From the IMG/VR virus record IMGVR_UViG_3300048929_000342, positions 1 through 21,384 of that record: a stretch of 21,384 bases of DNA, one strand, 5' to 3'. The DNA comes from a virus. Below are positions 678 to 20,236 of the stretch, in pieces (positions within the stretch are counted from its first letter, which is position 1; every line of letters starts with the position of its first letter). The position numbers and the translations under genes are program-made. The notes beneath the pieces are model-generated. The model made no database searches. It was not told the DNA's origin and saw only the letters and a list, made by a program, of their open reading frames with translations.

Positions 678-753
678 GGGCGCATAGCTCAGTTGGTAGA
701 GCAGATGACTCTTAATCATCGGGTCCCAGGTTCGAGCCCTGGTGCGCCCACCA
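678..753 (+). tRNA. tRNA-Lys (CTT), CCA encoded
   Basis: A full cloverleaf can be drawn. The acceptor stem GGGCGCA pairs with TGCGCCC; the D arm holds AGTTGGTAGAGC; the anticodon stem GATGA/TCATC encloses loop CTCTTAA with anticodon CTT (711-713), reading AAG lysine codons; the T arm contains GGTTCGAGCCC; and CCA is encoded at 751-753. The gene is the integration target of the element to its right. The last 47 bases of the mature tRNA (707-753) are provided by the 48-bp attL core, so the gene stays functional after insertion. Confidence 0.97.
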
Positions 754-754
754 C
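707..754 (+). repeat. attL core (48-bp direct repeat with attR)
   Basis: Bases 707-754 are identical to 20189-20236. The repeat begins in the 5' side of the anticodon stem and runs through the anticodon loop, T arm, acceptor 3' strand and CCA plus one base. Flanking bases differ at both ends (T706 against A20188; C755 against T20237). A repeat of this kind with an integrase at one end is the classic product of tyrosine-recombinase insertion into a tRNA 3' end. Confidence 0.95.
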
Positions 755-1206: not shown

Positions 1207-2277
1207 TTAACCGCCGAACTGCGCAACCAGTTTGACGATGGCCTGATCTGCCAACTCCGCCTGACCACCCAGATAGTTCGCTTCCAAGATTATTTCCACG
1301 TCTTTGAGGCTGTGGCCGGTGATCGAAGCAATCTGCGGGACAGTGCACCCTGCCAGCGCCAGCCGCGTGACAGCGGTGCCGCGCAGGTCGTGGAAATGCA
1401 GATCGAAGTCGCCCAGATTCGCCCGGTCGAATGCCTTTCCCCACGAGGTTCGGAAGCCGTCGCCGGTCCATGGCTCGCCGAAGGTGTTGCGTAGGATCGT
1501 CCCCTCGGGCTTTGCAGGCCGGCGCGCATCGAGCGCAGCCTTCAGCGCCGGCCCGACCGGGATCACAACGCGCTTCTTCGCCTTGCCTCTGCGGCGCTTG
1601 CCCTGCTGCAATCTGATGTGGGTACCGTCGTATTGCGACCATGTGATCTTGATCAGGTCACCTTGGCGCTGGCCTGTCCAGAGCGCGATCAGTAGTGCGA
1701 ATTGAAGCTCGGGCGATGCTGCAGCGCAGAACGCTGTGATGTGTTCGGGTTGCCAGATGATGTCGGCGCGGTCCGATTCGTAAAGCCGGCCGCCGCGCTC
1801 GCACACGTTGACCGCGATAGTCCCATGATCCTTGGCCACCGCCAGCACGCGCGCGATCGTTGTCCAGGCGTAGTCCGCTGTCCGCGGGTTGTCCGCCATG
1901 CTTGCCCGCCACGTCTTGAACTTGCCGCGGGCGCGGCGATCTTGGACCACCGACAGCGGCATCGTGCCGAACTCGTCCTCAATCATCTTGAGGTATCGAC
2001 GGTAAGCCTTCTTGGTGACTTCCGCGAGCGAAGTGAACTCGGTGGACGCCCTGAATGCCGCGACCAAGGAGAACAGCGTTCCGGTAACAGGCTTGGTGCG
2101 ATCCGCATGCGCAGCCGTGTACGCGACCACGAACTGCGGATCGCCTGGCGACAGCGGTTTCCCATCGGCGCTTTTGAGCATAGGACCGCCGCGCCACGCA
2201 TAGTAGTATTTGCGCAGCGAGCCGTCAGCGAGCCGTTTAGACGCGGTCGCTACGCCGGGCAGCTTTCGCCGATGCAT
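1207..2277 (-). CDS. int: Tyrosine-type site-specific recombinase (integrase)
   Basis: 356 residues. This enzyme catalyses integration and excision between the two tRNA-Lys repeats. The C-terminal catalytic domain shows the family residues: Arg204 in TGQRQGDL, candidate Lys227 in the beta-hairpin, His296 and Arg299 in HDLRGTA, His322 in TGHS, and the nucleophile Tyr335 in EANYLG. The N-terminal half (about 60-165) looks like a SAM-like core-binding domain, preceded by a short basic N-terminal region that may bind arm sites. The start at 2277 overlaps the end of the upstream 72-aa gene by 41 bases, so it is probably translationally coupled to it. The gene lies last in a four-gene leftward operon and points at attL. 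Confidence 0.95.
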   Translation of the reverse strand: MHRRKLPGVATASKRLADGSLRKYYYAWRGGPMLKSADGKPLSPGDPQFVVAYTAAHADRTKPVTGTLFSLVAAFRASTEFTSLAEVTKKAYRRYLKMIEDEFGTMPLSVVQDRRARGKFKTWRASMADNPRTADYAWTTIARVLAVAKDHGTIAVNVCERGGRLYESDRADIIWQPEHITAFCAAASPELQFALLIALWTGQRQGDLIKITWSQYDGTHIRLQQGKRRRGKAKKRVVIPVGPALKAALDARRPAKPEGTILRNTFGEPWTGDGFRTSWGKAFDRANLGDFDLHFHDLRGTAVTRLALAGCTVPQIASITGHSLKDVEIILEANYLGGQAELADQAIVKLVAQFGG

Positions 2278-4105: not shown

Positions 4106-4399
4106 TTGTCAAATGAAAATGACGCACGCTTTCGCCTGCGAGAACTACACGCGCTACTGGTCAGTGAGATCGATCGCAACGCGCACGACTGCGCGGTCCG
4201 CGTTCTGAAGCAAATCGGCAAGGAAGCCGCTGCGGCACGCATCACCAACGATCCGATCGCCGTATCCGCCGACCTCGATATCCGCTTGACGTTTTGGCGC
4301 ACGTTGTACGACCGCGCCAAATCGCGCCGCGCGTTCGAGCAGGAACTGGAAATTCTCGAACATATGCGCAGGGAAGATGCGACGCGGGTGTCGGCATGA
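4106..4399 (+). CDS. Hypothetical protein preceding the primase-helicase (97 aa)
   Basis: 97 residues, starting with TTG behind a well-placed AAGGA. Predicted to be almost wholly helical and charged (RELHALLVSEIDRN, RLTFWRTLYDRAKSRRAFEQELEILEHM), with no domain I recognise. Its stop overlaps the ATG of the primase-helicase (ATGA at 4396-4399), so the two are translationally coupled. A role as an accessory of replication is inference from that coupling. Confidence 0.75.
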   Translation: MSNENDARFRLRELHALLVSEIDRNAHDCAVRVLKQIGKEAAAARITNDPIAVSADLDIRLTFWRTLYDRAKSRRAFEQELEILEHMRREDATRVSA

Positions 4400-7528: not shown

Positions 7529-8704
7529 ATGAAACTTGGCCCGTTCCGCTTCTTCGAAACCAAAGCTCTGCCTCAGACCGACGATGATATTCTCGCGCTG
7601 CTCGGCACCGGGCAGGCCGGTCTGATCACCAAAGCGCAGGCCTTGGAAGTCTCCGTCGTCAAGTCTGCAATCGCCGCGATCACGGACGCATGCGCGACAC
7701 TGGACATCAAGGTCGTCGAGGTGAAAGCGGACGGCAGCGAGGTTGACGCGCCGGACCGTCCCATCTCGAAGCTGCTTCAGGATCACGTCAACGCCTGGAC
7801 GAGCGCCTACGAATTTGTCCGCACCCTGATATTTAGATTGCTCACCGAAGATGCCGGCAGCATGGCATGGGTTAACCGTGTCGATGGGGAAGTCGTCGAA
7901 ATCCTCATTTACGCGCCCGGCGTTATCAGCGTCGAATACGACGAAACCGGTGAGCCATCCTACAAACTCGGCGATCGGCCGCTCGACTCCGCGGATGTCA
8001 TTCACCTGCGTTCCGCATTCGACCGCAGCCCGTTGACGATGGCCATGAAGGCCATCTCGACCGCCTGGCATCTCGAAAATCATGCCTTGCAACTGTTTCG
8101 CAAGGGCGCGCGTCCCGGCGGTGTGATCGAGTTCCCCGGTCAGATTGGCGACGAGAGCCTCAAGAAGATGGGGGCCAGTTGGCGCAAGGCTCACGAAGGC
8201 TCCGACAACGCCGGTCGGACAGCGCTGCTCTGGGGTGGTGCGAAGTTTACCGGCTACACGCTTAACAGCACAGACGCGCAGTTCATCGAGAACCGGAGCT
8301 TCCAGGTGCTCGAAATCTGCCGGCACTTCCGGATAGGCCCGGGAATGGTCTACGACCTGGGCCGCGTGACCTACAACAATGGCGAGCAGCAGGGTCAGGA
8401 ATTCCTGTCCTATAGCCTAGAGCCGCACCTGCGCGCACTGGAAGCCGCTTTGCGCCGTGCGCTGCTGTCGCCGGAAGATCGCGCGAAATATCGAATCGTC
8501 TTCGACCGCGATGACTTGACGCGCGCATCACTTAAGGACCGCGCCGTCGCCATCAACAGTCTGCGCGCGTCCAAGACGCTCAACGCCAACGAAGCCAGAT
8601 CCTGGATAGGTCTGCAGCCTTACACCGGCGGCGACGTATTCGAGAACACCAACATCACCACACCGGACCAAGCCCCCGTCGATCCTGCAACGGTGCCGGC
8701 ATGA
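7529..8704 (+). CDS. Portal protein, HK97 family
   Basis: 391 residues, normal for HK97-family portals. The portal forms the dodecameric ring at one capsid vertex through which DNA is packaged and to which the connector binds. Diagnostic stretches include the N-terminal FRFFETKA, DVIHLRSAF, MKAISTAWHLENHAL followed by LFRKGARPGGV, FQVLEICRHFRIGP with the YNNGEQQGQEF segment, and the C-terminal DDLTRASLKDRA and LNANEARSWIGL. No Shine-Dalgarno precedes the ATG at 7529, but TATAAT (7518-7523) lies just upstream, so the mRNA could be leaderless. It overlaps the next gene by ATGA (8701-8704). First gene of the morphogenesis block, with no terminase upstream. Confidence 0.95.
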   Translation: MKLGPFRFFETKALPQTDDDILALLGTGQAGLITKAQALEVSVVKSAIAAITDACATLDIKVVEVKADGSEVDAPDRPISKLLQDHVNAWTSAYEFVRTLIFRLLTEDAGSMAWVNRVDGEVVEILIYAPGVISVEYDETGEPSYKLGDRPLDSADVIHLRSAFDRSPLTMAMKAISTAWHLENHALQLFRKGARPGGVIEFPGQIGDESLKKMGASWRKAHEGSDNAGRTALLWGGAKFTGYTLNSTDAQFIENRSFQVLEICRHFRIGPGMVYDLGRVTYNNGEQQGQEFLSYSLEPHLRALEAALRRALLSPEDRAKYRIVFDRDDLTRASLKDRAVAINSLRASKTLNANEARSWIGLQPYTGGDVFENTNITTPDQAPVDPATVPA

Positions 8705-9102
8705 GCGACCTGGCCCACCTCAACGATCTGATCGCCTATCAGGACCGCGGCGCCGAAATGGTTGCCAAGCATCCCGTCACCGGCGAAACGATGCCCGACA
8801 TCGTGCTGATCATTGCTGGACCTGACTCGGACACAGCACGCCGCGCTCGCCTCACCATGCAGGACGAATTGCAGGCATGGCGCTCGGCACCGCCAGCGCA
8901 AGATTATGACAGGCTGGCAATCGAGCGGCTCACCCGCTGCGTCGTCGGCTGGCGCGTCAAGAAGGCCGGCGTCGAACTGCCGTTCACTTTCAGCGCTGTA
9001 GTGAAGCTTTTCACCGACATGACGTTCATCCGCGAGCAGGCTGACCGCTTCGCCGCCGATCGCACCCCGTATTTCATCCGCACCCCACTGGTTGACGAAT
9101 AA
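8701..9102 (+). CDS. Tail-assembly-chaperone-like phage protein
   Basis: 133 residues. The C-terminal half (RLTRCVVGWRVKKAGVELP, then FTFSAVVKLFTDM, FIREQADRFAADRTPYF) matches a pattern I know from small tail-assembly-chaperone-like phage proteins: 'VVGW-----G--LPFS-----L---PFIREQVD-F--DR--F'. The N-terminal half carries LIIAGPDSDTARRARLTM. These proteins are not virion structural parts; chaperone function is by analogy. The gene overlaps portal (ATGA) and protease (TAATG), which is a strange place for a tail chaperone, normally near the tape measure gene. Coding status is sure; function is moderate. Confidence 0.65.
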   Translation: MSDLAHLNDLIAYQDRGAEMVAKHPVTGETMPDIVLIIAGPDSDTARRARLTMQDELQAWRSAPPAQDYDRLAIERLTRCVVGWRVKKAGVELPFTFSAVVKLFTDMTFIREQADRFAADRTPYFIRTPLVDE

Positions 9103-9599
9103 TGGACAACCTCGAACTCAAGGCCGCGCTCAGCGTCACCGACGATGGCCAGATTACCGGCAACGCATGGCCGTTCGGATCGGCCGACAGCGTGGGCGAC
9201 ATCATCACTAAGGGCGCATTCGGCGACATCCATCCCGACCTGCCGATCTTGTATCAGCACAACCCCGCCGATCTGGTTGGCACCTGGACCGAAGCAACGG
9301 AGACGGCCGAAGGGCTGTCCGTCAAAGGTCAGCTTCATCTCGACCAGCCGCGCGCGCGTTCCGTCCGCGCCATGCTCAAGAGCGGACTTGTCAGCGGTCT
9401 CAGTATCGGCTTCCGCACCAAGGCCTCAACCAAGCAGGGCCGCAACCGCGTGATCAGCGCGCTCGATCTGGCGGAAATTTCACTCGTTCGAGATCCCAGC
9501 CATCCGCGGGCACGCATCACGTCCGCGAAATCCTTCGACCAGGCCGTTGCATTTGCCGAGGCCATTCACCGCGCGACGGCCGCGCTTACAAGGAACTGA
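9102..9599 (+). CDS. HK97-family prohead maturation protease
   Basis: 165 residues, typical of the family. The serine protease cleaves the N-terminal scaffold (delta) domain of the capsid protein during head maturation. It begins with the usual beta-strand (GQITGNAWPFGSADSVGDII), includes KGAF, the His motif LYQHNP (His53), the serine motif SGLSIGF (98-104) and the C-terminal strand AEISLVRDPSHPRARI. Its start overlaps the stop of the preceding gene (TAATG), and the capsid gene follows four bases later. Confidence 0.95.
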   Translation: MDNLELKAALSVTDDGQITGNAWPFGSADSVGDIITKGAFGDIHPDLPILYQHNPADLVGTWTEATETAEGLSVKGQLHLDQPRARSVRAMLKSGLVSGLSIGFRTKASTKQGRNRVISALDLAEISLVRDPSHPRARITSAKSFDQAVAFAEAIHRATAALTRN

Positions 9600-9603
9600 C
9601 CAT

Positions 9604-10794
9604 ATGAAGCACGTTTCCCCGCTCGAATTCAAAGACGAAAACCTCGACCCGGCAGCCCTCGTCACCAAGGCGCTGGACGATCTGTCGAAGACCGTGGATG
9701 AACGCCTGAAGGCTGTCGAGACCAAGGGCGTCGACCCCGACCTCCTGAAGCGCCTCACCGCGATCGAAGCCAAGTCGAACCGTCCGGGTGCGGGCGCCAA
9801 GACTTCAGACGAACAGGCCGAACTCGAAACCAAGGCCCTCGCATCGTTCGCGCGCACCGGCAGCGATGTGGAGATGAAGGCCGCCGCCTCGGACAACAAC
9901 GTCGATGGCGGATGGTTGGTACTGCCGACCGTCGATCTGCGCATCCGCACACTGATGGCCGACCTGTCGCCGATGCGCAGCCTGGCCGAAGTGGTCACGA
10001 TCGGCACCAGCAGCTATGAGCGTTTCTACAGTCTCGGCAAGCGCGGCGCACAGCGCGTCGTCGAACGTGACGATCGCCCGCAGGACACCGCGCGTCCGGA
10101 ACTTATCAAGCAGGCCTACGGCGTCGGCGAATATTACGCCGCTCCCGCCGCTACCCGTCATCTGCTCGACGACGCCGCGGTCGATATCGCTTCGTGGCTG
10201 ATCAACAACGCCACCCAGGACTTCGCCGAGACCGAAGGCGAGGACTTCCTGCGCTACGACGGGTCGAATGGTTTCCCGCGCGGCCTCCTGACCTACGACA
10301 ACACCAGCGAAAAGGACTTCGTCCGTGCCTGGGGCAAGTTCCAGTACACCGCCGCGGGACATGCATCGGCTCCGACCGACGCGCAGTTGATCACCGCCCT
10401 GGTCAAGCTGGTTGCGTCGCTGCGTCGTCCGTACAAGGGCAACGCCCGGTTTGTCATGAACAGCAACACGGCTGTGCGGCTCCGCACCGTGGTCGACGCG
10501 AACGGCCGCTTCCTGTGGGCTCCGACCGGCAACCTGATCGAAGGTATCGAGCATCCGCTGCTCGGCTATCAGGTCGAGATCGACGATGAATTCGACGACA
10601 TCGGCGCAGGCACGCTGCCCGTGGCCTTCGGCGATTTCAAGCAGGGCTACGTCATCGTTGATCGACAGGGCATTCGTGTCGAGCGCGATGCGATCACCCA
10701 GAAGGGCCGCGTGCTGTTCGACACCTACAAGCGTGTGGGCGGCGGCGCGGGCGACTTCAACGCCATCAAGTTCCTGAAGGTTGTGGCTTCGTAA
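9604..10794 (+). CDS. Major capsid protein, HK97 fold
   Basis: 396 residues. The start at 9604 has AAGGA at 9590-9594; an earlier in-frame start at 9547 would run into the protease gene. Residues 1 to about 95 form a charged helical delta/scaffold domain (KALDDLSKTVDERLKAV, LLKRLTAIEAK) that the upstream protease would remove, near VEMKAAASDNN. The mature shell domain starts about DGGWLVLP and shows the HK97 signatures: LSPMRSLAEVVTI, ATRHLLDDAAVDIASWL, GEDFLRYDGSNGFPRGLL, LVASLRRPYKGNARFVMN, and C-terminal GDFKQGYVIVDRQGIRVERD. Single gene, so the element codes its own coat rather than borrowing one. Confidence 0.95.
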   Translation: MKHVSPLEFKDENLDPAALVTKALDDLSKTVDERLKAVETKGVDPDLLKRLTAIEAKSNRPGAGAKTSDEQAELETKALASFARTGSDVEMKAAASDNNVDGGWLVLPTVDLRIRTLMADLSPMRSLAEVVTIGTSSYERFYSLGKRGAQRVVERDDRPQDTARPELIKQAYGVGEYYAAPAATRHLLDDAAVDIASWLINNATQDFAETEGEDFLRYDGSNGFPRGLLTYDNTSEKDFVRAWGKFQYTAAGHASAPTDAQLITALVKLVASLRRPYKGNARFVMNSNTAVRLRTVVDANGRFLWAPTGNLIEGIEHPLLGYQVEIDDEFDDIGAGTLPVAFGDFKQGYVIVDRQGIRVERDAITQKGRVLFDTYKRVGGGAGDFNAIKFLKVVAS

Positions 10795-10828: not shown

Positions 10829-11215
10829 GTGAAAGACACCTATCACGACACCAAGATCGCCCCGTCGCTCGTCTCCGCCGTGCAGGCTGCAACGCTGAAG
10901 GGTGATGCGGTCGACCTGCAGGGTTTTGGCTCGGCGCTTATGGCGGTCAACACCGGCGCCATCGCATCGTCCGGCCTTTATGACGTCCGGATGCAGGAGT
11001 CGGACACCACGACGGACGGCGACTTCACCGACGTCGCTTTCGCCGATCTGCTCGGCTCACTTCCCTCCAGCCTCGCCGCATCGTCCGTCTATCGACAGGG
11101 CTACATCGGTAAGCGCCGCTACATCCGCGCGGTGATCACCAAGCAGTCCGGCACATCGATCGCTGCCGGTGCCGTGTTCATCCTGGGTCATCCTGCCCTC
11201 GCTCCCGTAGCGTAA
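10829..11215 (+). CDS. Capsid decoration-like protein (128 aa)
   Basis: The start is taken as GTG at 10829, seven bases after AAGGA (10817-10821); the ATG at 10781 lies inside the capsid gene. The protein is likely beta-rich with a 'LQGFGSALMAVNTG ... MQESDTTTDGDFTDV ... YRQGYIGKRRYIRAVIT ... GHP' layout. I know this from small proteins next to HK97 capsid genes in many siphophages, where a capsid-surface or decoration role is suspected. A 7-bp-plus hairpin ends the capsid transcript section just downstream. Role is inferred from position and family resemblance. Confidence 0.75.
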   Translation: MKDTYHDTKIAPSLVSAVQAATLKGDAVDLQGFGSALMAVNTGAIASSGLYDVRMQESDTTTDGDFTDVAFADLLGSLPSSLAASSVYRQGYIGKRRYIRAVITKQSGTSIAAGAVFILGHPALAPVA

Positions 11216-11229
11216 GCGGACTGAAGGAT

Positions 11230-11266
11230 ACGCCGGTTGCACGGATGTACTGCAGCCGGCGTCTTT
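11230..11266 (+). terminator. Hairpin after the capsid/decoration genes
   Basis: ACGCCGG (11230-11236) pairs with CCGGCGT (11256-11262), extended inside by a T-G pair and TGCA/TGCA (11238-11241, 11251-11254) around a nine-base loop. CTTT follows. A strong stem with a short T-run: probably a partial terminator or an mRNA-stabilising 3' end that sets capsid expression above downstream genes. Confidence 0.5.
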
Positions 11267-11280
11267 CCAGGATCATCCCC

Positions 11281-11652
11281 ATGCCTATGAAGCCAGCCCG
11301 AATTCTTTCATGCGGATGTCGTGTCGCCTCAGGTGAGCGGTGTCACCACGTGATCGTAGAGAAGCGCGCCATCTATCGTGCATCCGATGCAAGGCGACCT
11401 TCATCTGGCCAGCGTGGCTATGACGCCGAATGGCAGCGCGTCAGCAAAGCCTACCTTGCCGAGCCAGGCAACGACCGATGCGGATGCGGTGCGCCTGCTG
11501 TGTTGGTTGCGCACATCTTCTCTATTCGCAAAGCGCCGCACCTCAGGCTCGATCGATCGAACTGGAAGCCGTCGTGCCAGCGCTGCAACGCCATCGATAG
11601 AGCGAACGATAGCCCCGGGGGTGGTCGGAATGTTTCAGCAAATGCTTCCTGA
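11281..11652 (+). CDS. HNH endonuclease (packaging-associated type), variant active site
   Basis: 123 residues from ATG 11281 (AGGA at 11267-11270). The pattern QRGYDAEWQRVSKAYLA, a CGCGAPA Cys cluster (C67, C69), VAHIFSIRK (His78), LDRSNWKPSCQRCN (Asn94, C99, C102) is that of small phage HNH nucleases that work with TerL in cos-type packaging. Two positions differ from the usual form: VDHI is VAHI, and the final His of the CH motif is Asn103. HNN variants of this fold are known, so activity is possible. There is an extra N-terminal Cys/His group (C11, C13, C21, H22, H23) that may bind another metal. Placed far upstream of the terminase genes. Confidence 0.8.
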   Translation: MPMKPARILSCGCRVASGERCHHVIVEKRAIYRASDARRPSSGQRGYDAEWQRVSKAYLAEPGNDRCGCGAPAVLVAHIFSIRKAPHLRLDRSNWKPSCQRCNAIDRANDSPGGGRNVSANAS

Positions 11653-11829: not shown

Positions 11830-13125
11830 ATGCCCCATAAGATCAATCTTGTTCGCGTTCTCACGAGCGCCACAGGCAACTCGACTCCGATCACGCTCGG
11901 CGCGAAGTACTCGCAACTGTTTCTCCTACCGTCTGAAGCCGGCGCAATGGACGGTCGGACCTACTCGTACCTGATCGTCGACGGCAACAACTGGGAGCGC
12001 GGTCGCGGCGTTTACACTGCGTCCGGTACCACCTTGGCGCGGAACGTCACTCAGTCGTGGAATGGCTCCGTACTCGGAACAAGCCGAATCTCGCTATCCG
12101 GCACCGCGCAAGTCCGATTCGCCGAGCCTGCCGAAGATATGGATGGCGTCCGCGGAACTCGCGCGGTCACTGGAACGTCGGACACGCTGAACGATTCCGA
12201 TCTTGGCTATGTCGTCACCTACAGTAACGCGAGCGCGGTAGCCGTGTCGCTGGCACAGGCGTCGGTGTCGAACCTGTTCATGGATGGCTGGGCGGTCTGG
12301 GTTAAGAACAAGGGCGCTGGTGCCGTCACCATTACGCCAGCCACCAGCACGATCGATGGGGCTGCAACACTGGTGCTGGCGCAGAACCAGGGCGCGCTGA
12401 TCTGGTCGGACGGAACGAACTACCAGTCGTTCAAGCTCCGCGGCGATCTGGGGACGGCCGCGGTGCGCGCAGACACGGACTTCGTGCGAACGGATACGGC
12501 GCAGTCGCTGTCGACGTCTCAACAGTCGCAAGCCCGCTCAAATGCCGGTATTGATGTAACAACACTCTCCAAAACGGCAGGCTACACCGTAGTCGCTGCA
12601 GATTACGGTGCGCTGATCAAGTGCAGCGGAACTTTCACGCTGGCGCTCACTGCCGCGGCGACTCTCGGCGATAAATTCAAGGTGTTCGTGCGCAACACCG
12701 GCACAGGGTTGGTCACGCTCGATCCAAATGCTTCTGAGTTGGTGGATGGCGTCGCGACCGTCGGACTTTTACCCGGCACCGGCTGCTGGGTAATCTGCGA
12801 TGGTACTGGTTTTGTGACAATCGGTCGCGCGGTTGAGGCACAGAACCTGTCGACTACCGGCTATCTAAAGTTGGCTGGTGGACTGATCATGCAGTGGGGC
12901 ACGACGGGGGTCGGCGCACAGACAGTGACGTTCCCTGTAGCATTCCCGAATGCATGCCTCCGGATACTGGCCATGGTCGATATCGGAACTACAACCGCGT
13001 TCGTTGTCTCTCCAAACATCAGCACGCCATCGACCACCAGCTTCACGACCTCTCCGACGTATTCGACTGGCGGATCTCCGACGGCTGCTGGAAATTCAGT
13101 CTCTTGGATAGCATTGGGGAATTGA
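11830..13125 (+). CDS. Tail-fibre-like / receptor-binding protein
   Basis: 431 residues, GGAGAG just before ATG 11830. Residues 1-95 are a beta-rich N-terminal domain (ITLGAKYSQLFL, DGRTYSYLIVDGNNWERGRG, VYTASGTTLARNV) seen in fibre-like proteins of alphaproteobacterial phages. Residues 118-201 and 250-331 are two copies of one beta-domain (pattern ...W-VWVKNKGAGAVTI... and ...F-VFVRNTGTGLVTL..., each ending in a DGT motif), divided by a short linker. The C-terminal part (348-431: LAGGLIMQWGTTG ... VTFPVAFPNACLRIL ... SWIALGN) resembles the gp53-like tail-fibre C-terminal domain that binds the host surface. It lies inside the head gene block, where tail fibres are not usual; a head fibre or decoration role is the alternative. 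Confidence 0.8.
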   Translation: MPHKINLVRVLTSATGNSTPITLGAKYSQLFLLPSEAGAMDGRTYSYLIVDGNNWERGRGVYTASGTTLARNVTQSWNGSVLGTSRISLSGTAQVRFAEPAEDMDGVRGTRAVTGTSDTLNDSDLGYVVTYSNASAVAVSLAQASVSNLFMDGWAVWVKNKGAGAVTITPATSTIDGAATLVLAQNQGALIWSDGTNYQSFKLRGDLGTAAVRADTDFVRTDTAQSLSTSQQSQARSNAGIDVTTLSKTAGYTVVAADYGALIKCSGTFTLALTAAATLGDKFKVFVRNTGTGLVTLDPNASELVDGVATVGLLPGTGCWVICDGTGFVTIGRAVEAQNLSTTGYLKLAGGLIMQWGTTGVGAQTVTFPVAFPNACLRILAMVDIGTTTAFVVSPNISTPSTTSFTTSPTYSTGGSPTAAGNSVSWIALGN

Positions 13126-13126
13126 G

Positions 13127-13330
13127 ATGAAAACTCTCGCGACTTTCAACGATGACGGCTTCCCGACCGCATTCTACCGGGCGGACGTCAATGACCTCAC
13201 GGTCTGCCCGCCGGACGCAGTAACGATCACGAATGAACAGTGGCTGGAATTTATCAACAATCCAGGACGTCGAAAATTCGTCGGAGGCGATGTGGTGGAG
13301 TGTTTTCCGATCGTCGCCGCAGCAGTCTAA
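13127..13330 (+). CDS. Small fibre-partner protein (67 aa), tail-fibre-assembly-like
   Basis: 67 residues, ATG one base after the fibre stop, with GGGGA at 13116-13120. The C-terminal part TNEQWLEFINNPGRRKF then VGGDVVE follows the pattern of tail fibre assembly chaperones, where '-is-eqw--l-----R-i--g-vve' is typical. Position directly behind the fibre gene supports that. The protein is much shorter than classic Tfa proteins (about 190 aa), so it could be a chaperone core or a small virion protein. Called by pattern and location. Confidence 0.65.
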   Translation: MKTLATFNDDGFPTAFYRADVNDLTVCPPDAVTITNEQWLEFINNPGRRKFVGGDVVECFPIVAAAV

Positions 13331-13408: not shown

Positions 13409-13714
13409 ATGATGGCCGTTGATCTCAGCACCGCGAAGCAGCACCTGAACCTGACGACGTCGGATGACGATGTGCTGGTTATTCGGCTGCTTTTGGCCGC
13501 GCAAGATTGGTTGGAACGGCAACTTGGCTACAAGATTGATGAGCGATACCCGGACGACGCGCCGCCGGCGCTGGATCAGGCGGTCTACCTGATGACTGGC
13601 CACTATTATGCCAACCGCGAGGCGACGCTGGTTGGCGTGTCCGCCGCGACGCTGCCGTTTGGTCTGGATCACATCGTCAACGATTACCGAGATTGGTCGT
13701 GGTCCTGTGAGTGA
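13409..13714 (+). CDS. Head-tail connector (gp6-like)
   Basis: 101 residues with the layout of HK97 gp6-family adaptors: DLSTAKQHLNLTTSDDDVLVIRLLLAAQ at the N-terminus, WLERQLGYKIDE, then a helix (APPALDQAVYLMTGHYYANRE) and a PFGLDHIVNDYR end. These proteins ring the portal and continue the DNA channel into the neck. The ATG at 13409 has AAGGA at its ideal place; a second ATG follows directly at 13412. It overlaps the next gene at GTGAGTGA (13707-13714). Confidence 0.88.
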   Translation: MMAVDLSTAKQHLNLTTSDDDVLVIRLLLAAQDWLERQLGYKIDERYPDDAPPALDQAVYLMTGHYYANREATLVGVSAATLPFGLDHIVNDYRDWSWSCE

Positions 13715-14141
13715 CCCATCTGCCGCGGTCCAGATAGCGTTGCGCGCCCGCTTCATTGCGACCGCTGCTGTGACTGCCCTGGTTCCGGCAAACAGCATCC
13801 TCGACCACAACCAGCGTCCCGCACCAAGCCCATCCATCGTGCTCGGTGAGGACCAGGTGGTGGATGCAAAACTCACGATCAAACGCGATTACGTGCGGGT
13901 CTACAGCACAATCCACATCTGGAAAAAGGAACCTAGCTTGGCCGGTGTCAAAGCGATCAGCGACGCCATCCGGCGGTCAGTCGGTCGCGTGCGGGCGCTG
14001 GACCTCGCGGATCCTGACTATGCCGCCACCGATTGCCACGTTGAGTCATCCCGCTTCATGCGGGATCCCGATGGCGAGACCTCCCATGGCGTCATGGTGG
14101 TCAGCACCCTGGTTCAGCAGCGTTGGAGCGTGACGATATGA
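13707..14141 (+). CDS. Tail terminator / tail completion protein (DUF3168-like)
   Basis: 144 residues from GTG 13707, eight bases inside the preceding gene; no separate ribosome binding site, so coupled translation. The family layout is clear: SDPSAAVQIALRARF, VPANSILDHNQRP, PSIVLGEDQVVD, then STIHIWKKE and the helix VKAISDAIRRSVG, then a LVQQRWSVT strand. In siphophages these hexamers cap the tail tube and join it to the head. Its presence means that the element codes the tail side of the neck even though it lacks a tube protein. Confidence 0.85.
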   Translation: MSDPSAAVQIALRARFIATAAVTALVPANSILDHNQRPAPSPSIVLGEDQVVDAKLTIKRDYVRVYSTIHIWKKEPSLAGVKAISDAIRRSVGRVRALDLADPDYAATDCHVESSRFMRDPDGETSHGVMVVSTLVQQRWSVTI

Positions 14142-14461
14142 GGGCCGGCAGCATGGACCGCACGGTCGTTATCCAGCGTTCCACCACCACGATCGATCCC
14201 GCCGGCACACCTGTCGAGACCTGGTCAGTCGTCGCGACGCTGCGCGCGCAGATCATCAAAGCCTCGACGGAGGAATTCATCCGCGGCGCCGGCGCCGCCG
14301 ACGAGACCGCCGTGGTGTTTCGCGTCCATTGGCTGGACGGTGTCACCAATGCGGACCGCGTCATCTACCAGGGCGTCATCCACAATCTGAAAGAGACCCG
14401 CGAGATCGGCCGTCGTCAGGCGCTGGAACTGCGCACGCTCTCGACCGGGGTAGCGCCATGA
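14138..14461 (+). CDS. Head-closure protein (SPP1 gp16 / head-tail adaptor family)
   Basis: 107 residues starting at ATG 14138 in an ATGA overlap with the preceding stop, with GGAG at 14125-14128. Family pattern: MDRTVVIQRSTTTIDPAG, TWSVVATLRAQIIK, a STEEFIRGAGAADE segment, then FRVHWLDGVTNADRVIY, HNLKETREIGRRQALEL. It seals the portal-connector complex after packaging. Start at 14153 (MDRTVV) is possible, but the overlap and ribosome site favour 14138. Confidence 0.88.
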   Translation: MRAGSMDRTVVIQRSTTTIDPAGTPVETWSVVATLRAQIIKASTEEFIRGAGAADETAVVFRVHWLDGVTNADRVIYQGVIHNLKETREIGRRQALELRTLSTGVAP

Positions 14462-14844
14462 AGGGTGACAAGCCCGCTATAGTGACCGACAAGAAGGCCG
14501 TCTCCACCGTGCCAAAGGTGCCGTCCTGGCTGTCTCCCGACGCCAAAAAGGAGTGGCGCCGCGTCATGCCAGCGCTGGTCGAGCGGCGCATCCTGACCGA
14601 GGCGGACCTCGGCTCGCTCGAACACTACTGCGTGGCGTGCGGCCGCATCCGCGAGATTGAGCGTCTGATCCAGGCCGCCGGCGCCGCGATCGATCCCGCC
14701 ACGTTCCGCATGCAGGACAAGGCGATGCAGACGGCGCGCCAGCTTGCCGCCGAGCTTGGCCTCACACCGGTCAGCCGGTCCCGCCCGTCTATCCGCGACG
14801 ACGGCAACGAAGATGAAGATGACAACCCGCTCAACGTATCCTGA
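14458..14844 (+). CDS. terS: Terminase small subunit, P27 family
   Basis: 128 residues starting in an ATGA overlap. P27-type signatures: VPSWLSPDAKKEWRRVMP, LTEADLGSLEHYC, ARK/ACGRIREIERLI, then MQDKAMQTARQLAAELGLTPVSRSR and an acidic tail (DDGNEDEDD). It recognises the packaging site and delivers DNA to TerL. The gene lies after the neck genes, while in most siphophages it comes before the portal. It overlaps TerL by 32 bases in another frame. Confidence 0.9.
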   Translation: MKGDKPAIVTDKKAVSTVPKVPSWLSPDAKKEWRRVMPALVERRILTEADLGSLEHYCVACGRIREIERLIQAAGAAIDPATFRMQDKAMQTARQLAAELGLTPVSRSRPSIRDDGNEDEDDNPLNVS

Positions 14845-16426
14845 CTGGCTATTCGATGGCTCAGAGATCGCCGATCCCTTCGGATATGGCGAGCGTGCGG
14901 TACGTTTCCTGCGCGCGCTGAAGCACCCCAAGAGCACGCTGCCGAAGCGGGCCTTTCAGCTTGATCCGTGGCAAGAGCGGATCGTGCGCCGGATCTACGG
15001 ACCGCGCCACCCGGACGGTACCCGCATCGTGAAAACGGTCCTGCTGCTGCTTCCGCGCGGGAACCGCAAGACGTCGTTCGCCGCGGCGCTGAATCTGCTT
15101 CACACGATAGGACCGGAGCGCGGGCCGCGCGGCGAGGCCGTGTTCGCAGCGTCCGACCGGGCACAGGCGGGCCTCGGCTTTGCCGAAGCCGCCAGCATCA
15201 TTCGCGAGGACAAGCGCCTCGTCAGCGCCACCCGCATCTATGACGCGCACAACTCTGTGAAAAAGATCGTCCTGAAAAAGGGCGGTTCATTTCTGGAAGC
15301 GATCAGCGGCGACGGTGCGCCAGCGCACGGCCGGACGATCGCCATGGCCCTGGTCGACGAGTTGCATGTTTTCCGGAACGCCGAACTCTGGAAGGCGATC
15401 AAGTCCTCGCTGCCCAAGACCCAAGGCTCGCTTCTGATCGTGGCGACCACCGCCGGCCGCGGTCAGGAGAACATTGCGTTCGAGATCGTCGACTATGCGC
15501 GCAAGGTCGCCCGCGGCGAGATCGACGATCCGTCCATGCTGCCGATCCTGTTCGAGACGCCGGCGGATGCCGACTGGAAGGACGATGCGCTGCTGTACCG
15601 CGCAAATCCCGGCCTGGCGCTTGGGTATCAGGACATCGCCGGGCTGCGCCAACTACGTAAAGAAGGCGAGTCGAGCATCACCGCACGGGAGACCTTTCGC
15701 CAGCTTCACCTGAATGTCTGGCTCGACCACTCGGAGACGCCTTTCGTGGAGATGGACATATACGACAGGGGCAACCGTCCGCTGCCGCCGGACATCGATG
15801 GCCTGCCATGCTGGATCGGCGTCGACATGTCGACGACCACCGATTTGACCGCGGTTGTTGCGTGCGTGCGAAAGGACGACGACTACCTGATCCTGCCGTA
15901 TTTCTTCTGCCCGGCTGACAACCTCCGCGCACGATCGGAGCGTGATGGCGTTCCCTATGTTGCTTGGGCCGAGCAGGGCTTCATCACGCCGACCGCCGGC
16001 AACGTGATCGACTACCGCGCTGTCGAGGACTGCATCCGCGGCCTTTGTGAGCGCTTCGACGTCCGCGAGATCAATTTCGATAAGGCTTTCGCCAGCCCGG
16101 TCATGATCCCGCTGACCGAGGATGGGCTGCCGACGGCTACCATGTCCCAAGGTTGGCAGATCCAATCGCCGGCGCTGCGCGATCTGGAGCGGACGATCGT
16201 CGAGGGACGCTTCGTTCACGCGGGCCACCCGGTGCTCCGCTGGAACTTCAGCAACGTGGCGATCCACCAATGGGGGAATGACAACCGCGCAATGCGTAAG
16301 GGCAAGAGCACGGACCGCATCGATGGCGCCGTTGCCAGTTGGATGGCCGTCTCCCGAGCCGCTGGAGGCGGAGCGCGATCGATGTACGACCGCGAGGATT
16401 GGACCGAGGAGATGGGGTACTTCTGA
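14813..16426 (+). CDS. terL: Terminase large subunit (ATPase and nuclease)
   Basis: 537 residues from ATG 14813 (or 535 from ATG 14819). An upstream in-frame ATG at 14744 would lie deep in terS and is not needed. N-terminal ATPase: Walker A variant LLPRGNRKTS (79-88), Walker B ALVDE (Asp182, Glu183), coupling motif near IVATTAG (209-215). C-terminal RNase-H-like nuclease: GVDMS with Asp338, and IDGAVASW with Asp504 near the end. With P27 TerS and an HNH nuclease in the same element it probably cuts at cos ends. The TGATG overlap with the next gene ties it to gp10. An element-coded TerS/TerL pair means packaging is self-directed. Confidence 0.95.
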   Translation: MKMTTRSTYPDWLFDGSEIADPFGYGERAVRFLRALKHPKSTLPKRAFQLDPWQERIVRRIYGPRHPDGTRIVKTVLLLLPRGNRKTSFAAALNLLHTIGPERGPRGEAVFAASDRAQAGLGFAEAASIIREDKRLVSATRIYDAHNSVKKIVLKKGGSFLEAISGDGAPAHGRTIAMALVDELHVFRNAELWKAIKSSLPKTQGSLLIVATTAGRGQENIAFEIVDYARKVARGEIDDPSMLPILFETPADADWKDDALLYRANPGLALGYQDIAGLRQLRKEGESSITARETFRQLHLNVWLDHSETPFVEMDIYDRGNRPLPPDIDGLPCWIGVDMSTTTDLTAVVACVRKDDDYLILPYFFCPADNLRARSERDGVPYVAWAEQGFITPTAGNVIDYRAVEDCIRGLCERFDVREINFDKAFASPVMIPLTEDGLPTATMSQGWQIQSPALRDLERTIVEGRFVHAGHPVLRWNFSNVAIHQWGNDNRAMRKGKSTDRIDGAVASWMAVSRAAGGGARSMYDREDWTEEMGYF

Positions 16427-16821
16427 TGGCTGACGATCTGGACCGATACCTCGCGGCGTTGCCTGACAAGATCCGTCGCGAAGTGGGCGGCGTGGTCCGT
16501 GACCAAGCCCAAATGCTCTCCGATGCCCAGCGCGATGCGTTGCGCGGGCTGGAGCAAGCGCCTGCTGACAGCGGCGACCTGGAAGCGTCCTGCACCGTTG
16601 TCCGGGGCACCGACGATCTCGAATGGATTGTGCAGGCAGGCGGCGACGAGACCACTGGTGACGTCCGCACCGGCAGCGGTGTCGATTTTGACTACGGCGA
16701 GGCTTTCGAGTTCGGCACCAGCCGGCAGCAAGCGCGCCCGTTCTTTTGGCCAACCTATCGTGAGAAGCGCGACGGGATCCGGCAAGCAATCGCTTCAGCG
16801 GTGGAAAAGGTAATCAAATGA
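16426..16821 (+). CDS. HK97 gp10-family neck/tail component
   Basis: 131 residues, start overlapping the TerL stop (TGATG). Family pattern: DLDRYLAALPDKIRREVGGVV with a long helix, LEASCTVV, then DFDYGEAFEFGTSRQQARPF and the closing FWPTYREKRDGIRQAI helix. HK97 gp10-like proteins are part of the tail-proximal neck. Directly linked to terminase here, which is not the usual neighbour. Confidence 0.88.
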   Translation: MADDLDRYLAALPDKIRREVGGVVRDQAQMLSDAQRDALRGLEQAPADSGDLEASCTVVRGTDDLEWIVQAGGDETTGDVRTGSGVDFDYGEAFEFGTSRQQARPFFWPTYREKRDGIRQAIASAVEKVIK

Positions 16822-17198
16822 ATCAATGCGCGCGCGAAGTGACATGGGCTGGCGGCGTCCATGTTTTCAATCTGAACGAACCGCGAGTCCTGAAGGTGCT
16901 CAACGGGGCGCCGGATGCGTTGAAGATGCTCCGCACCCGCACGGGTGTGTTCACGCTGGAGCCGCTACGTGGCCAGTTCGGCGACACGCCGGCTGCGTGC
17001 TTACGACGCTTTGAGGAAGGGGTCTATTCGCTGCCAGACGTCGAGCGGGTGATCCTCTACGGCCTGTGGGGCGGCGGCATGAAATTCAGTGACGCGGATG
17101 CGCTCGTCGAGGAATTCGTACGCAACCAGCCCGTTCACCAGAATGCTGTGATCGCTTATGGCGTCGTGGCCGACCTGTTCGTAGGAGTCACCAATTGA
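16818..17198 (+). CDS. Tail assembly chaperone, GTA-gp10-like
   Basis: 126 residues, ATGA overlap with gp10. It resembles the tail-assembly-chaperone family seen in gene transfer agents (gp10-like): 'FNLNEPRVLKVLN', a RTGVFTLEPLRGQFGD stretch, SLPDVERVILYGLWGGGMKFSDADALVEEF. Such chaperones keep the tape measure in solution while tube subunits gather. It precedes the tape measure gene with the typical tight overlap, but the tube gene that normally comes just before is absent. Confidence 0.75.
   Translation: MNQCAREVTWAGGVHVFNLNEPRVLKVLNGAPDALKMLRTRTGVFTLEPLRGQFGDTPAACLRRFEEGVYSLPDVERVILYGLWGGGMKFSDADALVEEFVRNQPVHQNAVIAYGVVADLFVGVTN
17183..17187 (+). promoter_or_regulatory. Ribosome binding site deciding the TTG start of the tape measure gene
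   Basis: AGGAG lies seven bases before TTG 17195, which overlaps the preceding stop (TTGA). This supports TTG as the true start. Confidence 0.7.
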
Positions 17199-19372
17199 GC
17201 GTCCCAGCACTCAACATCCCGATCCGAGCCGACGTCAGCAAATTCAAGCAGGACATGGAGTCGACCAGTTCGATCGCCGGGCACGCCGTTCGTGGCATCA
17301 CGGCGCAGGTCATCAAGATGAACGCCGGCTGGCTGGCGACGCAAGGCGCAGCCGGCGGCGCTGCCCTGGCATTTGGCAGCGTCCTCGGCGTCCTCGGTCC
17401 CATTGCCGCAGGCGTGGCTGTGGTCACCAACACCTTCAAGCTCATGGCGTACGCGACCGAGCTTGCCAAGAAACAGATCGAAGAATTCAACGACGTTGCT
17501 GACAAAGCCGCCGGCACGGGCGTCTCGACGGATTTCTTCCAGCGGTTCACCAAGACGGCGCCCGCCGCCGCGCTTTCGCTCGACCAAGTGACCGCCGCGC
17601 TGAAGCGGTTCAACGAGGCGTCTACCGACAAGCTCGGCGGAAGCGACTTGCAGCAGCGGCTCGACGCCCTGACCAAGGCTGGCAATTTCGCCGGCAACAG
17701 CGGGACCGCTGAACTCGGCGCGTCCAACAACACCGAGGAGAAGCTGCGCGCCACGGCAAAGTTGATCAGCGAGGCCCTGGACAAGGGCGAACGGCTGGCT
17801 GCTCTTGATATTGCGGGCAAGGCGTTCGGCGCGCCTGTCGCCGAGGCGTTGCAGAAGAACAGCGGCTATCTCGACGACATGCTGAAGCGCGCCGATGCGC
17901 TGAACAAGTCGCAGATCATCTCTCCCGAGGACGTCGGCCGCGCGATCGAACTCAAGGAGCGGATGGACGCCGCACAGCAGACGCTGTCCGAGAAGTGGAA
18001 GCCGGTCCAGGACGACCTCGCGAAGCTCGGCATGAACTACCACCAGAGCTGGGTGGAGATCACGGAGGACCTCGCCGCGGCCGTTGGCTATGCCACCCAG
18101 CTCTATTCGGCGCTCAACAAGGTGCCGGACTGGTTTGCCAAACGGATTGGCGGAGCATCTGTGTGGCAGTCGATCACGGATGCCACGACCACGCCGGCGA
18201 GCCGGGCAGCATCCGAGATGTCGCTTGGCATTTCCAGCGATCCTGTCGATATCGCGTCCGTCGATTCCAATGCCAAGCTTCGCGCTGCGCTTCAAAACCA
18301 TGGCAACGTCACGCGAGGGATGCAGCAGGCGACCGATATCCAGTCGGCGGTGCGGGGCGACACGTCCAAGAACCCGACCGAAGCCAAAGCGGAAACGGCC
18401 GACCAGTTCGACCGAGCGACTGAGGCGGTGCAGAAGCACACCGCCCGAACGGAGGCTGACACCAAGGCCGTCGGTCTCGGCGCCGGCGCGCTCGGCGAAC
18501 TGCGCACCGAGGCACAGTTGTTAACCGCCGCGCAACAGGCCGGCCTGCCCATGACGCAGGCGCTGGCTGACAAAATCCAGGATCTAGCCCAAGACGCCGG
18601 CGACGCCGCGACGGCTTTGGAAAGGGCCAAGGTCGCCAGCGAGATCAGATTTGACCGCGGTAGTGCCTTCCTCACATCGGAGGATCTGCAGATCGCGCAA
18701 CGGCTCAAGGGCATCTACGGCGACGACATTCCGGCAGCCCTCGCCAGCAGCGAAGCCGCGGCGATGCGGTTCACCAACAGCCTGCGGTCCATGTCCGACT
18801 TGGGTCAGCAGATCAACCAAGGCATGTTTGTCGAGTTTGGGCAGAACATCCGAAACGGCGCCAGCGCCTTCGACGCGCTGAAGCAAGCCGGCAGCAGCGC
18901 GCTCGGCAAGATCGCCGACAAGCTGGCTTCGATGGCGGCGGACAACCTCTGGAAGTCGGCATTCGGCGGCTCCAGCGGCGGCGGCCTGATGTCGCTTTTG
19001 GGTCTGGGCGGCTCCAGTGGCGCGGAGCTTCCCGGCTTCGGCACCGCCAGCTTTGTCGGTCCGCTTCCTGGCAATGCGACCGGGACGGACAACTGGCGGG
19101 GCGGTCTGACCCGCGTCAACGAACAGGGCGGCGAGATCATGAACCTGCCGGGCGGCACTCAGATCATCCCGCACGATATCTCCATGGCTATGGCGAAGGG
19201 TGGATCTGGAGGCGGCAGCGTCACGGCACCGGTCACAATCACAATCGATGCCACCGGTGCGGATCCCGCCGGCTTAGCGAGGGTTCAGCAGCAGTTGGCG
19301 ACCCTGAAGGCGGAACTGCCCGCACGGGTCGTGGCAGCGGTCACGACCGCCAAGAAGCAGCGCCAGCTATGA
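17195..19372 (+). CDS. Tail tape measure protein
   Basis: 725 residues from TTG 17195. The N-terminus (LNIPIRADVSKFKQDMEST) is typical of tape measures, followed by a hydrophobic stretch (51-79: AAGGAALAFGSVLGVLGPIA), long Ala/Lys-rich helical regions, and the C-terminal tape measure signature GGLTRVNEQGGEIMNLPGG (636-654) with TQIIPHD. The length sets the tube length; at the usual 0.15 nm per residue this predicts a tail near 110 nm. No peptidase or lytic domain was seen. It overlaps genes on both sides (TTGA, ATGA), so there is no sign of a deletion at its borders. Confidence 0.9.
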   Translation: MSVPALNIPIRADVSKFKQDMESTSSIAGHAVRGITAQVIKMNAGWLATQGAAGGAALAFGSVLGVLGPIAAGVAVVTNTFKLMAYATELAKKQIEEFNDVADKAAGTGVSTDFFQRFTKTAPAAALSLDQVTAALKRFNEASTDKLGGSDLQQRLDALTKAGNFAGNSGTAELGASNNTEEKLRATAKLISEALDKGERLAALDIAGKAFGAPVAEALQKNSGYLDDMLKRADALNKSQIISPEDVGRAIELKERMDAAQQTLSEKWKPVQDDLAKLGMNYHQSWVEITEDLAAAVGYATQLYSALNKVPDWFAKRIGGASVWQSITDATTTPASRAASEMSLGISSDPVDIASVDSNAKLRAALQNHGNVTRGMQQATDIQSAVRGDTSKNPTEAKAETADQFDRATEAVQKHTARTEADTKAVGLGAGALGELRTEAQLLTAAQQAGLPMTQALADKIQDLAQDAGDAATALERAKVASEIRFDRGSAFLTSEDLQIAQRLKGIYGDDIPAALASSEAAAMRFTNSLRSMSDLGQQINQGMFVEFGQNIRNGASAFDALKQAGSSALGKIADKLASMAADNLWKSAFGGSSGGGLMSLLGLGGSSGAELPGFGTASFVGPLPGNATGTDNWRGGLTRVNEQGGEIMNLPGGTQIIPHDISMAMAKGGSGGGSVTAPVTITIDATGADPAGLARVQQQLATLKAELPARVVAAVTTAKKQRQL

Positions 19373-19797
19373 TCGACCACGAATGGCTGCAGGACCGGCT
19401 GGCTGGCGTGCTGCGCTGGCAACTGGCGCACCCTGGAGAGGTCGACAGCCCCGACGCACCCGAAGTCCCGATCGCGGGCCAGCGGGTTTGGGGGCTGTTT
19501 CTGGCGCTCCACGCGGCGCGCACGGGCAACGGCTTCGGCCCGAACCCGTTGAGCAACGCCGAGATCGAAACTTACGCTCGGATGGCGCGCGAGCCTATTC
19601 GACCGTTTGAGTTTGAAATGCTGCGGGCGCTCGACCGCGCGTACCTAGAAGCGTCGCGGGAGCAGGCGAAACCCGAGGAGCCGGAGCGGGAGCGCCCCTC
19701 GTCGGGCGATATCATGGGTGCATTCCGGCGGGCCGCGAAGCAGGAGGTGTCGGAGCGGGTACTGACCGCCCCATTGTTCGACGCGCTGTTTCCGTGA
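19369..19797 (+). CDS. Tail-assembly-associated protein (142 aa)
   Basis: ATGA overlap with the tape measure stop. The core LSNAEIETYARMAREPIRPFE then FEMLRALDRAYLEA follows the 'p-ei-aya----pl-pwE---l-alD-ayl' pattern found in small proteins beside tape measure genes (often named tail assembly chaperone or minor tail assembly proteins). The C-terminus is charged and then has a short helical end. In most phages this type comes before the tape measure; here it follows it. Function by pattern only. Confidence 0.65.
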   Translation: MIDHEWLQDRLAGVLRWQLAHPGEVDSPDAPEVPIAGQRVWGLFLALHAARTGNGFGPNPLSNAEIETYARMAREPIRPFEFEMLRALDRAYLEASREQAKPEEPERERPSSGDIMGAFRRAAKQEVSERVLTAPLFDALFP

Positions 19798-20188: not shown

Positions 20189-20236
20189 GACTCTTAATCA
20201 TCGGGTCCCAGGTTCGAGCCCTGGTGCGCCCACCAC
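20189..20236 (+). repeat. attR core: tRNA-Lys 3' remnant
   Basis: Identical to 707-754. It holds the tRNA-Lys sequence from within the 5' side of the anticodon stem to CCA plus one base, without D arm and 5' acceptor strand, so it is not a functional tRNA. It marks the right end of the element; host sequence resumes at 20237. Confidence 0.95.

What the first reader, a model, noticed from the sequence alone, without database searches (positions are those of the whole stretch)
16818..19797. Tape measure and tail chaperones kept while the tail tube gene is missing
The block codes a tail terminator, a GTA-gp10-like chaperone, a 725-aa tape measure and another tail-assembly-like protein, but no tube protein between terminator and chaperone, where it normally lies. 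The tape measure sets tail length, so a satellite that supplies its own tape measure could rebuild the helper's tube to its own length (about 110 nm by the 0.15 nm per residue rule). That goes beyond simply stealing finished tails.
Basis: partly seen in the sequence, partly recalled or inferred. Interest (0 to 1): 0.78.

Follow-up and report, generated by a model that had tools for sequence, protein, structure and literature searches.

The report
Satellite building tails on borrowed tube
A complete 19.5-kb soil-bacterium phage satellite makes its own heads and its own tail "ruler" and assembly helpers but no tail tube, so it most likely builds hybrid tails from another phage's tube protein, a trick shown in 2026 for cholera-phage satellites and found here in many Bradyrhizobium elements.

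Summary
The window contains an integrated element with both ends visible (perfect 48-bp repeat, 707-754 and 20189-20236, at tRNA-Lys; 19.48 kb). It encodes integrase, primase, a full head/packaging set and the overlapping genes Ne1-TAC_11-TMP-TAC_18 (16426-19797). No tube, distal-tail or hub gene is detectable; the one unassigned tube-sized structural gene (10829-11215) is predicted to be a jelly-roll capsid cement.

This is not decay. Fifteen relatives carry Ne1-TAC_11-TMP, and TMP dN/dS is 0.09-0.11. Complete phages with related TMPs have a tube gene beside Ne1; only one satellite (L017) has a tube. Most satellites also carry chaperones of complete rhizobial phages, moved away from the tail operon.

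Best explanation: chimeric tails, with satellite TMP and chaperones and helper tube and tip. This was demonstrated for Vibrio PLEs (PMC12987554), which also reports tmp genes in some cf-PICIs, so it is a known kind and this is a new variant. "Its own length" is not supported: satellite TMPs (708-753 aa) are as long as, or slightly longer than, related phage TMPs (660-718 aa).

The parts
707..754 (+). attL: 3' part of tRNA-Lys (tRNA 678-753), 48-bp perfect direct repeat
1207..2277 (-). tyrosine integrase
   Evidence: PF00589 3e-13; phrog_1 4e-34
4294..7014 (+). prim-pol / VapE-type primase-helicase (longest ORF; true start probably a little downstream)
   Evidence: PF05272 1e-58, PF09250 1e-33
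7529..8704 (+). portal protein
   Evidence: PF04860 1e-74
8701..9102 (+). tail assembly chaperone of family phrog_313, out of place between portal and protease; homologue of RHph_N28_2 EVB88_025 which follows that phage's tube gene
   Evidence: phrog_313 1.6e-8; 6e-8 to EVB88_025; dN/dS 0.08-0.10
9102..9599 (+). prohead protease S78
   Evidence: PF04586 3e-20
9604..10794 (+). HK97-type major capsid protein
   Evidence: PF05065 1.5e-55
10829..11215 (+). predicted jelly-roll capsid cement protein (phrog_5707); the candidate hidden tube, rejected
   Evidence: model pLDDT 78, Z 8.5-9.2 to phage cement or capsid-decoration chains
11245..11652 (+). HNH endonuclease
   Evidence: phrog_144 1.6e-14
11830..13125 (+). 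tail fibre (gp53-like C-terminus; N-terminal part 61-68% identical to fibres of phages L006 and L005); insertion absent from L001 and L002
   Evidence: PF21882 2e-16
13127..13330 (+). small gene with weak similarity to tail fibre assembly proteins
   Evidence: phrog_188 0.004
13409..13714 (+). head-tail adaptor Ad1 (gp6-like)
   Evidence: PF05135 9e-13
13707..14141 (+). tail terminator (Tail_completion_gp17)
   Evidence: PF11367 8e-21; phrog_176 3e-12
14138..14461 (+). head closure protein (Phage_HCP)
   Evidence: PF05521 1.7e-17
14458..14844 (+). terminase small subunit
   Evidence: PF05119 3e-21
14813..16426 (+). terminase large subunit
   Evidence: PF20441 1e-32; phrog_9 7e-122
16426..16821 (+). 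Ne1 / HK97-gp10-like neck or tail-completion protein; overlaps the next gene by 4 bp
   Evidence: phrog_5 4e-11; aligned with 14 relatives
16818..17198 (+). tail assembly chaperone TAC_11 (GTA-gp10 family)
   Evidence: PF11836 1.4e-11; helical model pLDDT 91; dN/dS 0.03-0.10
17195..19372 (+). tape measure protein, 725 aa; N-terminal ~395 aa of satellite/type-B kind, C-terminal part shared with complete phages L005 and L006
   Evidence: phrog_8892 3e-22; dN/dS 0.09-0.11
19369..19797 (+). tail assembly chaperone TAC_18; homologue of RHph_N28_2 EVB88_026 (between that phage's first chaperone and its TMP)
   Evidence: PF23812 8e-11; 35% over 109 aa, 2e-16, to EVB88_026; dN/dS 0.13-0.17
20189..20236 (+). 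attR: perfect copy of attL; the element ends here

Best explanation
The window holds a complete, integrated, capsid-forming phage satellite, probably of a Bradyrhizobium-like host. Shown by sequence: it encodes integrase, primase, head, packaging motor, connectors, terminator, Ne1, three tail-assembly chaperones, a tape measure and a tail fibre, and no detectable tube, distal-tail or hub gene; the arrangement is conserved in distant relatives and under purifying selection. Inferred: when a siphophage helper is active, the satellite's chaperones coat its own TMP, which docks on the helper's tail-tip complex through its C-terminal part; helper tube subunits are loaded around the TMP; the tube is capped by the satellite's terminator and Ne1 and joins the satellite's own head. 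The tail is therefore chimeric: satellite TMP, caps and (in this copy) fibre; helper tube and tip. The likely gain is tails that fit the satellite's own neck and that displace the helper's TMP, rather than a new tail length.
For: The element is complete and no tube or tip family is found in it; the candidate hidden tube is a jelly-roll cement protein. TMP, TAC_11, TAC_313 and TAC_18 are intact with dN/dS 0.03-0.17 at dS 0.2-1.35. The order Ne1-TAC_11-TMP recurs in 15 distinct relatives, five of them in Bradyrhizobium genomes. Tube family phrog_1407 is in 0 of 10 type-A records but accompanies the related TMP in every complete-phage record searched. 39 unassigned type-A ORFs give no tube hit. 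Chaperone pairs that lie between tube and TMP in complete phages (RHph_N28_2; RHph_Y60; L006) are kept in the satellites, moved or fused, without the tube. The TMP C-terminal part is up to 55% identical to that of complete phages (L005, L086) to which the N-terminal part shows only background similarity. PLE satellites were shown by western blot, mass spectrometry, TEM and tmp deletions to build such tails.
Against: No helper, induction, expression or particle has been observed. A tube of the L005 type or of family phrog_158 was not found in seven of eight satellite-bearing genomes. One relative (L017) has its own tube, so a tube-less state is not obligatory. Mosaic TMP C-termini are common among phages and need not mean helper matching. 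A tube of a kind unknown to Pfam and PHROGs cannot be fully excluded.
Confidence: 0.7

Rival explanations
1. Relic: the tail genes are leftovers of a prophage that lost tube and tip, and the satellite now takes finished helper tails as classical cf-PICIs do.
For: The order Ne1-TAC_11-TMP equals that of complete type-B phages minus the tube.
Against: dN/dS 0.09-0.11 for TMP and 0.03-0.10 for TAC_11; open and of near-constant length in relatives with only 40-92% TMP identity; TAC_313 and the fused chaperone pair sit in the head module, not where a deleted tail operon would leave them.
Confidence: 0.12
2. Interference: satellite TMP and chaperones mainly poison the helper's tail assembly (decoy TMP, titration of tube subunits), as an anti-phage function; the satellite's tails are taken from the helper.
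For: Tail assembly is a known target of defence: Rta of PLE11 and Tai.
Against: Tai and Rta are not TMPs; a decoy would not need terminator, Ne1 and a matched set of chaperones; blocking helper tails would also block a satellite that needs them unless it uses its own TMP, which returns to the chimeric-tail model.
Confidence: 0.08
3. Self-sufficient tail: an unrecognised satellite protein forms the tube, so no helper tube is used, at least in some members.
For: L017 does carry a phrog_158 tube; family libraries are incomplete.
Against: No unassigned protein of the right size remains in the window's structural region after modelling of 10829-11215; no tip or hub genes, so a helper is needed in any case.
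Confidence: 0.06

Closest known systems
Vibrio cholerae PLE satellites (PLE11, PLE1, PLE4) with chimeric tails on phage ICP1 (PMC12987554, 2026)
   Same: Satellite encodes its own TMP and TAC (PLE11 also a baseplate hub protein) while the tube and most other tail parts come from the helper.
   Different: PLEs take the helper's capsid and the contractile tail of a lytic phage; here the satellite has its own full head and packaging genes, the related complete phages have siphophage-type tail modules, and there are up to three chaperones of different families plus terminator and Ne1. No sequence comparison with PLE proteins was made.
Capsid-forming PICIs (cf-PICIs; Alqurainy et al. 2023, known here through PMC10690885 and PMC12987554)
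   Same: Own capsid, protease, portal, head-tail connectors, HNH, TerS and TerL; no tube or tip; satellite size. PMC12987554 Extended Data Fig. 10 reports putative tmp genes in a sampling of cf-PICIs.
   Different: The classical description has the helper supply the whole tail; this clade carries terminator, Ne1, TMP and 2-4 chaperone-like genes. PICI regulators and helper induction were not tested.
Complete rhizobial siphophages and prophages (type B loci L013-L033; L005/L086; RHph_N28_2; RHph_Y60)
   Same: Homologous TMP parts, chaperones, Ne1 and terminator.
   Different: They have tube, distal-tail and hub genes; the chaperones lie between tube and TMP.
RcGTA-type gene transfer agents
   Same: TAC_11 is the GTA-gp10 family.
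   Different: The element has integrase and att sites and lacks GTA tube (g9-like), distal-tail and hub genes.

Membership tests
Capsid-forming phage satellite (cf-PICI-like) | Integrated element with integrase and att sites, of satellite size | tested here: met
   48-bp att repeats 19,482 bp apart at tRNA-Lys, integrase 1207-2277
Capsid-forming phage satellite (cf-PICI-like) | Own capsid, portal, protease, connectors, HNH, TerS and TerL | tested here: met
Capsid-forming phage satellite (cf-PICI-like) | Tail entirely from the helper (no tail genes) | tested here: not met
   TMP, three chaperones, terminator, Ne1 and a fibre are present; tube and tip absent
Capsid-forming phage satellite (cf-PICI-like) | Induction and mobilisation by a helper phage; PICI-type regulators | not testable with these tools
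   No helper or experiment available
Satellite with chimeric tail (PLE kind) | Satellite-encoded TMP and chaperone, no satellite tube | tested here: met
Satellite with chimeric tail (PLE kind) | Satellite TMP incorporated in particles with helper tube; tmp needed for transfer | not testable with these tools
   Needs particles and a deletion mutant
PLE family itself | Sequence kinship with PLEs; helper capsid used | tested here: not met
   Own capsid and packaging genes; PLE sequences were not compared
Complete siphophage prophage | Tube, distal-tail and hub/tip genes | tested here: not met
   None found between the att sites; present in type-B and L005-type loci
Tail tube fold for 10829-11215 | Tube-type fold of siphophage tail tubes | tested here: inconclusive
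   Rows shown are jelly-roll and cement-like proteins, Z 8.5-11.2; no tube among them
Gene transfer agent | No integrase or att sites; own complete tail | tested here: not met
   Integrase and att present, tail incomplete

The most novel reading that the evidence does not exclude
Helper-adaptor chaperones: these satellites combine a constant TMP N-terminal half, cognate to their own Ne1 and TAC_11, with an exchangeable TMP C-terminal half and a second, relocated set of chaperones of particular phage families (phrog_313 plus TAC_18 in one subclade; a fused Y60/L006-type pair in the other). The second set would load a given helper's tube subunits onto the satellite's TMP, so that chaperone content decides which helpers can be used. 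Head-less Bradyrhizobium elements carrying a TMP with or without a fibre (L009, L082-L085) would be the minimal form.
Probability: 0.35. Interest if true: 0.75.

Novelty: new variant of a known kind. Interest (0 to 1): 0.55.

Why it matters
Until March 2026 well-characterised satellites were thought to take finished tails. PLEs then showed chimeric tails in one system, and the same paper pointed to tmp genes in some cf-PICIs. The present data show the arrangement as a selected trait of a clade of rhizobial satellites with their own heads, and TMP genes without tube in several other satellite-like elements. If the model holds, satellites commonly rebuild tails rather than borrow them. The split between satellite-type and phage-type halves of the TMP, and the relocated chaperones, would let one test which contacts load tube subunits and predict likely helpers from chaperone type.

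Tried and rejected
Hidden tube at 10829-11215: modelled and searched; it looks like a capsid cement protein; Foldseek alone gave no significant PDB hit and only unnamed phage proteins in BFVD. TAC_11 as the tube, as Pfam and PHROGs label it: rejected from the helical model and lack of any solved match, from g9 being the RcGTA tube, and from type-B phages having both. Degenerate prophage: rejected by dN/dS and conservation. TMP length as the key: not supported. TAC_313 in cultured phages by tblastn gave nothing; the link came through L017's tube and RHph_N28_2. PDB sequence searches of the chaperones gave nothing useful. The cf-PICI founding paper is not held. A single origin of satellite TMPs is not claimed: ten type-B phage TMPs form one supported clade, but some other phage TMPs fall among the satellites with weak support.
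Full report
What was claimed.

Extent of the element. A 48-bp perfect direct repeat lies at 707-754 (3' end of tRNA-Lys, 678-753) and at 20189-20236. The element is therefore complete in the window: 19,482 bp from repeat to repeat, with the integrase at 1207-2277. The toxin-antitoxin-like pair at 20420-21034 is outside it. The window itself is a virus-contig record without a host genome.

Gene content. HMM searches give integrase, prim-pol/VapE, portal, a phrog_313 tail chaperone (8701-9102), protease, capsid, 10829-11215 (phrog_5707, unknown), HNH, a fibre (11830-13125), Ad1, tail terminator (13707-14141), head closure, TerS, TerL, Ne1/HK97-gp10-like (16426-16821), TAC_11 (16818-17198), TMP (17195-19372) and TAC_18 (19369-19797). 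The last four overlap by 4 bp each, as in a translationally coupled unit. No tube, distal-tail or hub family appears, and five further unassigned ORFs have no Pfam hit.

Excluding a hidden tube. 10829-11215 was modelled from eight relatives (pLDDT 78). The structural aligner places it with phage jelly-roll cement and decoration chains: BPP-1 3j4u_H Z 9.0, Agrobacterium phage Milano 8fwg_l1 Z 9.2, Agrobacterium phage 7-7-1 9hz8 Z 8.5; YomS (6i5o, Z 11.2) and XepA (6i56, 10.9) rank higher and are not annotated as tubes. Ne1 aligns along its length with HK97-gp10-type relatives. TAC_11 is called 'tail tube' in Pfam and PHROGs, but its model (pLDDT 91) is mostly helical and finds nothing in the PDB, and the RcGTA tube is g9 (PMC7296036).

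Relatives. Scans of virus contigs and of one genome per species gave two main kinds of loci. Type A has the window's gene order, portal to TerL and then Ne1-TAC_11-TMP: the window, L001, L002, L003, L011 (same element as L021), L015, L017, L018, L025, L026, L028, L030, L031 and, from a search of 266 genomes of the genus of G004, L078, L079 and L081. These are 16 elements, several of them partial contigs. Type B are siphophage-type prophages with the order terminator-tube-Ne1-TAC_11-x-TMP-distal tail genes. Tube family phrog_1407 was found with the related TMP in every type-B record searched (9 of 9) and in 0 of 10 type-A records. Thirty-nine unassigned type-A ORFs gave no tube hit.

Exceptions in type A are informative. 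L017 has its own tube (phrog_158 4e-22; about 51-53% identical to the tube of Rhizobium phage RHph_N28_2) between cement and HNH. L015, L025, L030 and L081 carry a phrog_32 tail assembly protein (lambda gpI-like) after the portal. L011 carries a minor tail protein of phrog_14. The window carries a fibre inserted between HNH and Ad1. So a constant core (Ne1, TAC_11, TMP) comes with varying single tail genes, much as PLE11 adds a hub protein.

Selection. Among window, L001 and L002, dN/dS is 0.09-0.11 for TMP, 0.03-0.10 for TAC_11, 0.08-0.10 for TAC_313 and 0.13-0.17 for TAC_18, at dS 0.2-1.35. The block is maintained, not decaying.

Chaperones of complete phages. In RHph_N28_2 the order is tube, EVB88_025 (phrog_313), EVB88_026, TMP. 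The window's 8701-9102 and 19369-19797 are homologous to EVB88_025 (6e-8) and EVB88_026 (2e-16): both chaperones of that set are kept, in separate places, and the tube is not. In the other subclade a gene after the capsid (L003, L011, L015, L025, L028, L030, L031, L079, L081) matches the two chaperones that lie between tube and TMP in RHph_Y60 and L006, fused into one protein. TAC_313 and the fused gene lie in the head module, so they are not leftovers of a trimmed tail operon.

TMP halves. The first ~400 residues of satellite TMPs match type-B phages (43-61%) and show only background similarity to L005, L086, L006, Y60 and N28. The rest matches L005 (52%, window) or L086 (50-55%, L003, L011, L078, L079) and others. 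From general knowledge of siphophages, not tested here, the TMP C-terminus sits at the tail tip, so a phage-like C-terminal part is what a borrowed tip would demand. Mosaic TMPs are common in phages, so this is support, not proof.

Length. Type-A TMPs are 708-753 aa (median 740), type-B phage TMPs 660-718, L005-type 701-717.

Wider distribution. TMPs without a tube also occur in other elements of Hyphomicrobiales genomes: L009 (primase, fibre, Ne1, TAC_11, TMP, integrase; no head genes recognised), L010, L012, and L082-L085 (706-716-aa TMP; L084 and L085 with primase/helicase and a lone prohead protease, L084 with a fibre). Their ends were not mapped.

Literature. PMC12987554 (Nature, March 2026) shows that PLEs encode TMP and TAC, put their own TMP into tails built with ICP1 components, and lose 96-99.9% of transfer without tmp. 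Its Extended Data Fig. 10 reports putative tmp genes in cf-PICIs. The mechanism is thus known. What is added here: a conserved clade with own heads, the relocated phage-type chaperones, the two-part TMP, and the occurrence in other satellite-like backbones.

Verdict. Observation partly confirmed (the core is right; the terminator is misplaced). Interpretation partly supported: chimeric tails are likely, an own tail length is not supported. Nothing was shown experimentally; the helper is unknown.

Noticed in passing
L009:1994-18802 (Bradyrhizobium sp. Rc3b): Element with primase, fibre, Ne1, TAC_11, full-length TMP and integrase but no recognised head genes: TMP carriage without an own capsid.
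   Followed up: partly
L082, L083, L084, L085 (Bradyrhizobium-group genomes): Small elements with a 706-716-aa TMP (C-terminal part like L005) and no tube; L084 and L085 have a primase and a lone prohead protease, L084 a fibre.
   Followed up: partly
L085:5363-7347: AAA ATPase plus HNH pair resembling a Septu-type defence system close to the TMP gene (recognised from memory, not tested).
   Followed up: no
L012:6478-11647: TMP split by an apparent inversion: N-terminal 528 aa on +, C-terminal piece next to TerL on -, with a small DNA-binding-like gene between.
   Followed up: no
L001:3744-4937 against window 9604-10794: Capsid protein only 38% identical although flanking portal and protease are 83-93% identical: capsid gene swap between close relatives.
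   Followed up: no
L002:12193-12660: 155-aa ORF without family hit inserted between TMP and TAC_18.
   Followed up: partly
window 16818-17198; Pfam PF11836 and phrog_8985: The GTA-gp10 family is labelled 'tail tube protein' although it behaves as a chaperone; automated annotation will report a tube where none exists.
   Followed up: yes
window 20420-21034: RelE/HigA-like toxin-antitoxin pair just outside attR, so not part of the satellite (identified by eye only).
   Followed up: no
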